Below, one piece after another: positions 6,276-51,311 of a DNA stretch of 64,000 nt (position 1 is the first letter of the stretch; the number at the start of each line of letters is the position of its first letter). The stretch covers positions 3,528,230 to 3,592,229 of the forward strand of contig CP085689.1 in the NCBI GenBank assembly GCA_020683205.1, written 5' to 3'. The position numbers and the translations under genes were made by a program. The DNA comes from Lentisphaerae bacterium WC36 (GTDB lineage: Bacteria > Verrucomicrobiota > Lentisphaeria > Victivallales > SZUA-371). The notes below the pieces were generated by a model. The model had not been told where the DNA came from. It saw nothing but the letters and a program-made list of their open reading frames with translations, and searched no databases.

Positions 6276-6352
6276 TGGCGGGAGCGACGGGACTCGAACC
6301 CGCAACAACCAGATCGACAGTCTGGGACTCTAACCAATTGAGCTACGCCCCC
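6276..6352 (-). tRNA. tRNA-Asp(GTC), copy 1
   Basis: Complete 77-base tRNA on the minus strand including encoded CCA: acceptor GGGGGCG pairs with CGCTCCC, D-arm GCTC/GAGT, anticodon arm CCAGA-CTGTCGA-TCTGG with anticodon GTC, T-arm GCGGG-TTCGAGT-CCCGT, and discriminator G73 typical of tRNA-Asp. A run of seven T follows CCA on the minus strand. Identical to the four other copies. Confidence 0.97.
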
Positions 6353-6384
6353 GCAAAAAGCGGAAATAAAATTTTAGAATAAAA

Positions 6385-6461
6385 TGGCGGGAGCGACGGG
6401 ACTCGAACCCGCAACAACCAGATCGACAGTCTGGGACTCTAACCAATTGAGCTACGCCCCC
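6385..6461 (-). tRNA. tRNA-Asp(GTC), copy 2
   Basis: Identical in sequence to copy 1, with anticodon GTC, discriminator G and encoded CCA. It is 32 bases from copy 1; that spacer recurs with one mismatch between copies 3 and 4. Confidence 0.97.
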
Positions 6462-6514
6462 ATTCTAATCTAAAACATGTGCAATTTTCAAAACCATAAA
6501 ATTAATTTAAAAAA

Positions 6515-6591
6515 TGGCGGGAGCGACGGGACTCGAACCCGCAACAACCAGATCGACAGTCTGGGACTCTAACCAATTGAGCTACGCCCCC
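6515..6591 (-). tRNA. tRNA-Asp(GTC), copy 3
   Basis: Identical in sequence to copy 1. It is separated from copy 2 by 53 AT-rich bases and forms, with copy 4, a second version of the copy 1/copy 2 pair. Confidence 0.97.
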
Positions 6592-6623
6592 GCAAAAAGC
6601 GAAAATAAAATTTTAGAATAAAA

Positions 6624-6700
6624 TGGCGGGAGCGACGGGACTCGAACCCGCAACAACCAGATCGACAGTCTGGGACTCTAACCAATTGAGCTACGCCCCC
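6624..6700 (-). tRNA. tRNA-Asp(GTC), copy 4
   Basis: Identical in sequence to copy 1. It is joined to copy 3 by a 32-base spacer that matches the copy 1/copy 2 spacer except for one base. Confidence 0.97.
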
Positions 6701-6757
6701 ATTCTATCTAAAATATATTTAATTTTAAATCAATTTTCAATCACGGTAAATAAAAAA

Positions 6758-6834
6758 TGGCGGGAGCGACGGGACTCGAACCCGCAACAACCAGATCGAC
6801 AGTCTGGGACTCTAACCAATTGAGCTACGCCCCC
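6758..6834 (-). tRNA. tRNA-Asp(GTC), copy 5 (promoter-proximal)
   Basis: Identical in sequence to copy 1. It is the first copy to be transcribed; the predicted promoter lies about 50 bases upstream (towards higher coordinates). Confidence 0.97.
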
Positions 6835-20388: not shown

Positions 20389-20463
20389 GCCGGATTAGCT
20401 CAGTGGTAGAGCAACGCACTTGTAATGCGTAGGTCGTCAGTTCAACTCTGACATCCGGCTCCA
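20389..20463 (+). tRNA. tRNA-Thr(TGT), copy 1
   Basis: Complete 75-base tRNA with encoded CCA: acceptor GCCGGAT/ATCCGGC, D-arm GCTC-GAGC, anticodon arm ACGCA-CTTGTAA-TGCGT with anticodon TGT, T-arm GTCAG-TTCAACT-CTGAC, discriminator T. Identical to the next three copies. Confidence 0.97.
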
Positions 20464-20489
20464 TTCTTTTTTAGTATTTAAATTTGATT

Positions 20490-20564
20490 GCCGGATTAGC
20501 TCAGTGGTAGAGCAACGCACTTGTAATGCGTAGGTCGTCAGTTCAACTCTGACATCCGGCTCCA
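20490..20564 (+). tRNA. tRNA-Thr(TGT), copy 2
   Basis: Identical in sequence to copy 1, after a 26-base spacer; anticodon TGT and encoded CCA are present. Confidence 0.97.
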
Positions 20565-20612
20565 TTTTTTTTACAATTTTAGACTTTCGAAATTTCATTA
20601 GAAATTCTTCGA

Positions 20613-20687
20613 GCCGGATTAGCTCAGTGGTAGAGCAACGCACTTGTAATGCGTAGGTCGTCAGTTCAACTCTGACATCCGGCTCCA
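20613..20687 (+). tRNA. tRNA-Thr(TGT), copy 3
   Basis: Identical in sequence to copy 1. With its 48-base upstream spacer it forms the first unit of a perfect 123-base tandem repeat. Confidence 0.97.
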
Positions 20688-20735
20688 TTTTTTTTACAAT
20701 TTTAGACTTTCGAAATTTCATTAGAAATTCTTCGA

Positions 20736-20810
20736 GCCGGATTAGCTCAGTGGTAGAGCAACGCACTTGTAATGCGTAGGTCGTCAGTTCAACTCTGACA
20801 TCCGGCTCCA
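20736..20810 (+). tRNA. tRNA-Thr(TGT), copy 4
   Basis: Identical in sequence to copy 1, and preceded by the same 48-base spacer as copy 3. It is the last copy; a short T run follows CCA. Confidence 0.97.
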
Positions 20811-49089: not shown

Positions 49090-49522
49090 AATTTCATCCT
49101 TTTTATATCTATAAATGTTATTTTAAATTTATGAATACGACCAATAAATGGTCTTTGCGATTTTGCTAGAGAATTACAATAACAGTTATTTTTTAAGATA
49201 TCAATTATGATAGCAAATTTATATGAAAAATTTCTAAATAATTAAATATACATTTGTATAATTAAGTTTTTGTGATATATTTAAATTATATCGAAGCTCA
49301 CAAAGAGCAAAAATTTTTAGTAATCAAATATACAAAAGTAAAAAAGAGGTTTAAACTTATGAATCAGGAAAAAATAGTAGAAAATTATTAGAAAAAATTA
49401 CAAATGAAAGAACTTATAATAATTTAGGAGATTGGAAAAAGAAAATAATTAAGGACGTTCTTCAAGGACTTGAAAAGAAAAATAATGAGGCGCAATTAAA
49501 GTCTATTGTATATAACTATCTT

Positions 49523-49966
49523 TTGGATTATTTTCAAAAAGAACATTTTCGAAATATGATGGAGGTAACAGATTTAGAAGAACATGCTGGTTTATTTTTG
49601 AAGTTTTGCAATATAGTAGCAGTAACAATTGGTCCTTCTTTTAAAAGTAAAGATCCTTTAAACATTAAAATAACTAAAGAAATAGTTCATAATTTTGAAA
49701 ATGAATTTAAAAAAGATTTTAATACAAATAATAAGACTTTATTGAAAGAAATAAAAGAAAAACATGAAAAGCTTAATGAATATATAAAAAAACTTGAAGA
49801 AATTGATAGTAAAATTGCAAGTTTGAGAGACGAAAAAGATGATAGAAGCAAAGAAAAAATTGAAAAAAAATATGGTAAAGTTATTAACCTAATTATTAAC
49901 AATAATGCATATAAAATAATGTTTAGTGAAACTGAATTGAAGCAAATAGCTCAAAAAACTCATTAA
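49523..49966 (+). CDS. Middle open segment of the frameshifted gene
   Basis: An open frame of about 147 codons if begun at TTG 49523, though the same frame is open back to 49352 with no ATG, and 49523 has no ribosome site; ATG 49556 is the first ATG. It is highly charged (a K/E-rich coiled coil from about residue 72 to 118). Best read as the middle of the interrupted gene 49359-50358, not as an independent gene. Confidence 0.4.
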   Translation: MDYFQKEHFRNMMEVTDLEEHAGLFLKFCNIVAVTIGPSFKSKDPLNIKITKEIVHNFENEFKKDFNTNNKTLLKEIKEKHEKLNEYIKKLEEIDSKIASLRDEKDDRSKEKIEKKYGKVINLIINNNAYKIMFSETELKQIAQKTH

Positions 49967-50016
49967 TTCATAAAATAAGCAAATTTAGCAGTTTAGTAAA
50001 AAGAGCAAGAAAAACA

Positions 50017-50358
50017 ATGGATGTTATTGACAAAGTTATCAAAGTAGCTGAGGCTGGAGATTTTATAAATACTCTTTATCAGTTGAAAAATAGTAAAAAT
50101 GATGATAATGTAAAATATTTCTTAGATGTAAAGAAAGCTTTTAATACGGCTGGAGATTATTTAGAAGGCGCATTCGGTAAAATTCCTGGAATAGGTGATT
50201 TTATTAGAATGTATAATAGAGCGTTCAAGGCGGTTGACGGAGTTTTTAAAAAGGTTGCGAATTACGTTAAAAAAATTGAGAAAGAATTAAAAGTAATGGA
50301 TAAAGCATTTGGTCGTGTGCGTAAAAGAAACATTGCTGTCGACGATTTAGCCAGATAA
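50017..50358 (+). CDS. C-terminal open segment of the frameshifted gene
   Basis: A 113-codon frame from ATG 50017; the frame is open 27 codons further upstream and reads naturally there (S-L-I-H-K-I-S-K-F-S-S-L-V-K-R). The sequence K-I-P-G-I-G-D-F-I-R-M-Y-N-R-A-F-K is an amphipathic helix-turn-helix segment; the C-terminus is basic. No domain recognised. No convincing ribosome site precedes the ATG, which argues it is translated as part of the longer gene. Confidence 0.45.
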   Translation: MDVIDKVIKVAEAGDFINTLYQLKNSKNDDNVKYFLDVKKAFNTAGDYLEGAFGKIPGIGDFIRMYNRAFKAVDGVFKKVANYVKKIEKELKVMDKAFGRVRKRNIAVDDLAR

Positions 50359-50384: not shown

Positions 50385-51311
50385 ATGAAAAAAAGATTAA
50401 TTTATATAGCAAGTATTGTTGCATTAATAGTGATTGGCTTGATAACTTATAGTTATTTTTCGAATATTGTTTTTTATGAGTATTCAATTTATAATTTAAA
50501 AAAATTAAATGACAATGAATTGCAAAATAAAAGATTTAAAGGATATAATTTAACAGTTTACGCAACTAGTAAAAAGAAATATAAACTGCTTAAATACTTA
50601 TTAAAAAGAAGGTTAACCCCATTTAATGATGGGGCTGTTGCCTTTGGGATATCTGTGAAAAGAAAAGATTATATCAGTTTAGAATTATTCTTAAAATATG
50701 CTAAAGATAATAATATTAATCCATTTGATTTCTATATAGCTTTGGGACCCTGGGATAAAAATAGTTTGGATGTTATTCAATATTTAGAGAAGCATGGTTT
50801 AGATTTTAGTAAAAGAAGTGAATTTGGGAATCAGTTAGGAGTTTTTGCTCTTCAAACTGAAGCTGATAATATTCGTGATTATGTTGCTAAAAAATGTCAT
50901 AAATTTGCCAATATTCCTATTAATCACTACTGGCTTATTGTCTATTTAGTTAACGCAAATGATAAGTCAGTAAAACTTTTGCTGGAAAACGGTGTTGAAA
51001 AAAACTTATGTACAGAGTTAGTTTATGGAAATAGTGAAAACTCAATGAAGTATATAAAAAATCAGACTGATTTATTGAAAAATAAAAAGGATCATTCAGA
51101 AGTTGAAAAATTTAAAATTAAGAATAGTTTTTTCTGTGCAATTCGTAGCAATGATATACAAAAATTGGAGTTGATTTATAGTTGCTTTCCAAAATTATTA
51201 ACTCAAAAATGTGCTTATAAAAATCAAGATGTTGCTCCATTAGTTTATGCAAAAAAATTAGACAAACAAAATGCAGCCATATTTATTGAAGAAAAACTAA
51301 AAGCAAAATGA
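50385..51311 (+). CDS. Membrane-anchored protein with degenerate ankyrin-like repeats
   Basis: A 308-residue protein: N-terminal transmembrane helix (about 4-24) placing the rest outside the cytoplasm, then helix-pair repeats resembling ankyrin: I-S-L-E-L-F-L-K-Y-A, L-D-V-I-Q-Y-L-E-K-H-G-L-D, S-V-K-L-L-L-E-N-G-V, S-M-K-Y-I-K-N-Q, and the last A-I-R-S-N-D-I-Q-K-L-E-L-I-Y. Consensus is weak, so the fold is inferred. The gene starts 26 bases after the frameshifted gene and shares its terminator. Such a pair could be an effector and a binding or immunity partner, but nothing shows this. Confidence 0.55.
   Translation: MKKRLIYIASIVALIVIGLITYSYFSNIVFYEYSIYNLKKLNDNELQNKRFKGYNLTVYATSKKKYKLLKYLLKRRLTPFNDGAVAFGISVKRKDYISLELFLKYAKDNNINPFDFYIALGPWDKNSLDVIQYLEKHGLDFSKRSEFGNQLGVFALQTEADNIRDYVAKKCHKFANIPINHYWLIVYLVNANDKSVKLLLENGVEKNLCTELVYGNSENSMKYIKNQTDLLKNKKDHSEVEKFKIKNSFFCAIRSNDIQKLELIYSCFPKLLTQKCAYKNQDVAPLVYAKKLDKQNAAIFIEEKLKAK

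What the first reader, a model, noticed from the sequence alone, without database searches (positions are those of the whole stretch)
49359..50358. One gene broken at two separate A6 runs in the same direction
A strong ribosome site and ATG (49359) open a frame that dies after ten codons; adding a single A to the A6 run at 49369-49374 opens it to 49966, and adding a single A to the A6 run at 49953-49958 extends it to 50358. Two independent lesions of identical type at identical-length homopolymers in one 1-kb gene are not what random decay gives. The rest of the frame has no stops. Either the assembly has two homopolymer errors, or the gene is expressed by polymerase slippage on A runs, as in AT-rich genomes, or it is phase variable.
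Basis: partly seen in the sequence, partly recalled or inferred. Interest (0 to 1): 0.75.

Follow-up and report, generated by a model that had tools for sequence, protein, structure and literature searches.

The report
Accessory gene broken at two A-runs
One optional bacterial gene has lost its reading frame at two short runs of A, as have two of its three sister copies elsewhere in the same genome; this looks like ordinary loss of a dispensable (perhaps costly) gene by DNA-copying slips while its partner gene stays whole, not a programmed trick.

Summary
In detail: one ~333-codon gene (49359-50358) is interrupted twice, each time one base short at an A6 run. Intact relatives show that it is one gene: a paralogue elsewhere in the genome is a single 358-codon ORF, and four relatives in other genomes are single ORFs. 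The genome holds four paralogues and three are broken (four breaks). Every break interval contains one A6, every break is one base short, and they lie at non-homologous positions. The downstream ankyrin-type partner gene is intact in all four loci. A frameshift-aware scan of 864 kb found only about eight other frameshifts, all in accessory or mobile genes, none in core genes, so widespread homopolymer mis-assembly is unlikely. No conserved slippery position or downstream RNA structure supports programmed slippage, and A6 is short for transcriptional slippage. Best reading: young pseudogenes made by DNA-polymerase slippage in very A-rich accessory genes, inactivation being tolerated or favoured (perhaps half of an effector/immunity-like pair; two copies sit beside identical integrase genes). 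Phase variation is not excluded without population reads. Novelty is low, though the protein family matches nothing in Pfam, PHROGs, PADLOC or NCBIfam.

The parts
49248..49346 (+). conserved leader shared by all four paralogues (ATACATTTGTAYAAT, GCTCA..GAGC, TATACNAAAGTA); contains a sigma70-like TTGTAT-16-TATATT by eye
49359..49391 (+). start codon and first frame, ten codons, ending at a stop
49369..49374 (+). A6 run, break 1 (frame one base short)
49376..49966 (+). second segment of the same gene, single copy in this genome
49953..49958 (+). A6 run, break 2 (frame one base short)
49957..50358 (+). third segment: conserved C-terminal region, 50% identical to the intact paralogue
50385..51311 (+). 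intact downstream partner gene, membrane-anchored; ankyrin match weak here (below Pfam cut-off), clear in paralogous partners

Best explanation
The gene is a recent pseudogene of a small accessory family. It encoded an all-helical protein of about 330-360 residues, co-directional with a membrane or secreted ankyrin-repeat protein. DNA-polymerase slippage removed one base at each of two A-tracts (inferred A7 to A6). The same kind of mutation hit two other paralogues at other tracts. Because the upstream gene is repeatedly lost while the ankyrin partner is kept, the upstream product is probably dispensable or costly and the partner still useful, as in an effector gene lost with its immunity gene retained. 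Shown: one gene, four one-base-short breaks in three of four paralogues, intact partners. Inferred: mutation mechanism, order of events, effector/immunity roles.
For: Intact paralogue of 358 aa reads across both break regions; relatives in other genomes are single ORFs. Breaks at non-homologous places. Partner genes intact in 4 of 4 with a similar number of A/T runs: 4/42 breaks against 0/52, Fisher p = 0.037. Elsewhere frameshifts fall in an IS256-type transposase, an Rhs fragment, an integrase, a sulfatase and two hypotheticals, the classes that decay. Two paralogues lie beside identical integrase genes. Literature: indels concentrate in homonucleotide repeats (PMC3812077); long A/T tracts suffer replication indels giving pseudogenes in Buchnera (PMC5574713).
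Against: No nonsense codon or other lesion in the three broken genes, all four lesions alike: also what phase variation would give, though expected for young decay. No close orthologue or read data was available to date the lesions; dN/dS not measurable with paralogues at about 30% identity.
Confidence: 0.66

Rival explanations
1. Phase variation: the A-tracts of this family switch between lengths so that individual cells of the population express different copies.
For: Three of four paralogues off, one on; all lesions one base at an A-tract; no other damage; shared leader.
Against: Tracts of 6-7 are short for switching (general knowledge); two breaks in one gene must be corrected together; tract positions are not conserved between paralogues.
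Confidence: 0.13
2. Assembly or consensus errors at A7 runs, possibly from strain mixture over accessory elements.
For: Single-contig, 93% complete assembly, so possibly long-read; all four family breaks, and most background breaks at A/T runs, are one base short.
Against: A6, A7 and A8 runs are not depleted overall in intact ORFs (627, 230, 68 against 446, 181, 80 expected); no core-gene frameshift in 864 kb with 91% mid-gene sensitivity; partner genes clean; two 1.5-kb integrase copies agree base for base outside the segment ends.
Confidence: 0.12
3. Expression by RNA-polymerase or ribosomal slippage on the A6 runs (programmed or leaky).
For: All breaks need the same shift; transcriptional insertions prefer A/T runs (PMC5574713); low-level bypass at 3-8 base repeats is documented in a laboratory system (PMC3812077).
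Against: Sites not conserved among paralogues and in different codon phases; no downstream RNA structure (z -0.54 to 1.09); a proven case uses A11 at about 20-25% (PMC4256274); insertion frequency falls exponentially with shorter runs and no rescued pseudogene was seen in that study (PMC5574713); two events per transcript would be needed here.
Confidence: 0.06

Closest known systems
Frameshifted pseudogenes at A/T homopolymers (e.g. Buchnera, PMC5574713; Blochmannia, PMC3017870, title and abstract only)
   Same: one-base lesions at A-tracts in an AT-rich genome, rest of frame open
   Different: shorter tracts (A6), confined to accessory genes, not a reduced endosymbiont-like genome (3.66 Mb)
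tssM1 of Citrobacter rodentium, transcriptional frameshifting (PMC4256274)
   Same: gene whose frame is off at an A-tract, suspected rescue by slippage
   Different: there A11, one site, function proven; here A6, two sites, not conserved
Effector/immunity gene pairs with repeat-protein partners (general knowledge)
   Same: unknown protein next to a secreted or membrane ankyrin (here) or TPR (relatives L005, L080) protein
   Different: no secretion system, toxin domain or activity shown; no match in Pfam, PADLOC, PHROGs or NCBIfam

Membership tests
frameshifted pseudogene | intact homologues encode the whole in one frame | tested here: met
   L006 358 aa; L004, L005, L080, L081 single ORFs
frameshifted pseudogene | relaxed selection on the broken copy | not testable with these tools
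   no close orthologue: no match in the three other-genus genomes of the same family, only distant relatives elsewhere
programmed transcriptional slippage gene | slippery tract conserved in position among homologues | tested here: not met
   break positions differ among paralogues
programmed transcriptional slippage gene | heterogeneous transcripts at the tract | not testable with these tools
   no RNA data
programmed -1 ribosomal frameshift | slippery heptamer plus downstream structure | tested here: not met
   no fold beyond chance downstream of any of the four sites; codon phase of the run differs in L007 (sequence)
phase-variable contingency gene | tract length varies within the population | not testable with these tools
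   no reads available
effector/immunity pair | recognised toxin domain or secretion marker | tested here: not met
   no family above cut-off; Foldseek no match at E <= 0.001, model pLDDT 71
effector/immunity pair | adjacent partner gene conserved with it | tested here: met
   ankyrin-type gene follows in the same direction in all four loci of this genome; TPR gene on the other strand in L005 and L080

The most novel reading that the evidence does not exclude
A multi-copy contingency family: paralogous accessory genes with a common leader are switched on and off by one-base length changes in short A-tracts while their ankyrin partners stay on, so that cells of one population differ in which copy is active.
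Probability: 0.12. Interest if true: 0.55.

Novelty: new member of a known kind. Interest (0 to 1): 0.22.

Why it matters
It shows how to read a double frameshift at homopolymers: paralogues, the partner genes and a calibrated frameshift scan of the genome separate gene loss from sequencing error and from recoding. The repeated loss of one gene of a pair with the other kept points to a costly or toxic product, which is testable with the intact copy.

Tried and rejected
Two protein segments as separate genes: rejected, relatives are single ORFs. Systematic A7-to-A6 miscalls: rejected, A7/A8 runs abundant in intact ORFs. Most raw hits of the frameshift scan proved to be normal overlapping genes or near starts and were dropped by inspection. 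Relatives in genome contigs and viral contigs by conserved peptides and in phages and plasmids by tblastn: none. Fold search: no usable match. Alignment A3 was too diverse for a scan.

Full report
Setting. The window is G000:C1:3528230-3592229 of a single-contig 3.66-Mb assembly, 93% complete. No genome of the same genus is held; three genomes of other genera of the same family are. The taxon is not given by the tools; prepilin-type genes near the locus look Lentisphaerota-like (own knowledge).

Observation. The sequence is as described. An ATG at 49359 opens ten codons; the frame is lost near an A6 (49369-49374), continues one frame over to 49966, and is lost again near an A6 (49953-49958), continuing to 50358. 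Break intervals are 40 and 34 bases, with one A-run each. The gene is 74% A+T, 45% A, and has eight A-runs of six or more in 1000 bases, so A6 runs are not rare in it.

One gene, not two. The C-terminal segment finds three paralogues in the genome. L006 (1185590-1186666) is one intact ORF of 358 aa and aligns across both break regions. Relatives of the conserved part in other genomes of the order are single ORFs: L004 245 aa, L005 238 aa, L080 235 aa, L081 243 aa. A family profile matches our second segment from window 49388 on, so translation must have begun upstream, at the ATG that lies where the paralogues L006 and L008 start, just behind a shared leader.

The same thing in the paralogues. 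L007 (about 1139.2-1140.4 kb, minus strand) is split into 99 and 292 aa ORFs, L008 (about 3611.8-3612.9 kb, minus strand) into 260 and 68 aa. Both breaks are again one base short and each interval holds a single A6. The four positions are not homologous. In each locus the next gene in the same direction, an ankyrin-type gene with a signal or membrane N-terminus, is intact (308, 344, 465 and about 466 codons; the ankyrin match of the window copy itself is below cut-off).

Error or biology. I trained a phased fourth-order model on long ORFs and decoded 864 kb with a frameshift-permitting Viterbi path. Deleting one base in random A/T runs of intact genes showed a detection rate of 79/87 mid-gene and 30/63 near gene ends. 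After removing overlapping genes and ordinary starts by inspection, about eight frameshifts remain outside the family: two in an IS256-type transposase, two in an Rhs fragment, one each in an integrase, a sulfatase (next to a 4-base repeat), a signal-peptide gene and a hypothetical gene. None is in a recognisable core gene; these names are my reading of the translations. Intact ORFs of the first 464-kb sample hold 627 A6, 230 A7 and 68 A8 runs, no fewer A6 and A7 than codon shuffles give. In that sample the family has 4 breaks in 42 A/T runs of six or more; the rest about 6 in 1709 (p about 5e-5); partner genes 0 in 52 (p = 0.037). Uniform assembly error does not fit; relaxed or reversed selection on these genes does. 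One caution: the starting locus was chosen because it was broken, so the p-values describe clustering, not an a priori test.

Programmed recoding. No tract is conserved; the run starts at a different codon position in L007; downstream RNA is unstructured relative to shuffles at all four sites. A proven transcriptional case relies on A11 at 20-25% (PMC4256274), and genome-wide data show exponential decline with run length and no transcription error that restored a reading frame (PMC5574713). Low-level bypass at short repeats is documented in a laboratory system (PMC3812077), so leakiness cannot be ruled out; it would have to happen twice here.

Context. L006 and L007 each sit in a compact unit: a small helix-turn-helix gene, the shared leader, the family gene, the ankyrin gene, and a convergent tyrosine recombinase whose two copies are base-for-base identical over about 1.5 kb apart from gaps at the very ends. 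This suggests cargo of an integrating element. I saw no integrase beside our locus or L008. The 3' half of the leader also precedes a scaffold-like gene between portal and major capsid genes of a phage-derived cluster at 3594.7-3602.6 kb, which hints at shared control with phage genes; untested. No library names the protein; the predicted structure of L006 is all-helical with modest confidence and has no meaningful match.

Conclusion. The most economical account is repeated loss of a dispensable or costly gene by slippage mutations at A-tracts, with the partner retained. It is an ordinary mechanism in a so far unnamed accessory family. Phase variation is the main open alternative and needs read-level data.

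Noticed in passing
G000:C1:3596678-3596733 (L056 6678-6733): The 3' part of the family's leader (86% identity over about 55 nt) precedes a scaffold-like gene in a phage head gene cluster (portal, major capsid, internal virion protein) in which I saw no integrase or terminase (not searched for); possible shared control of phage and accessory genes.
   Followed up: partly
G000:C1:1136396-1137709 and 1187826-1189139: Two base-for-base identical tyrosine recombinase segments next to diverged cargo (family gene plus ankyrin gene); a 75-bp sequence near the integrase end recurs upstream at 1183932, perhaps an attachment site.
   Followed up: partly
window 6276-6834 and 20389-20810: Tandem arrays of five tRNA-Asp(GTC) and four tRNA-Thr(TGT) genes.
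   Followed up: no
L013 1300-2900 (G000:C1 about 1126.3-1127.9 kb): IS256-type transposase broken twice, one base short each time (near an A8 and an A4), the same style of lesion as in the finding.
   Followed up: partly
L005, L081 and L080: In other genomes relatives of the family lie beside small unidentified genes that recall phage tail genes (my impression; no Pfam or PHROGs match for those tested) and, in L005 and L080, a convergent TPR gene.
   Followed up: partly
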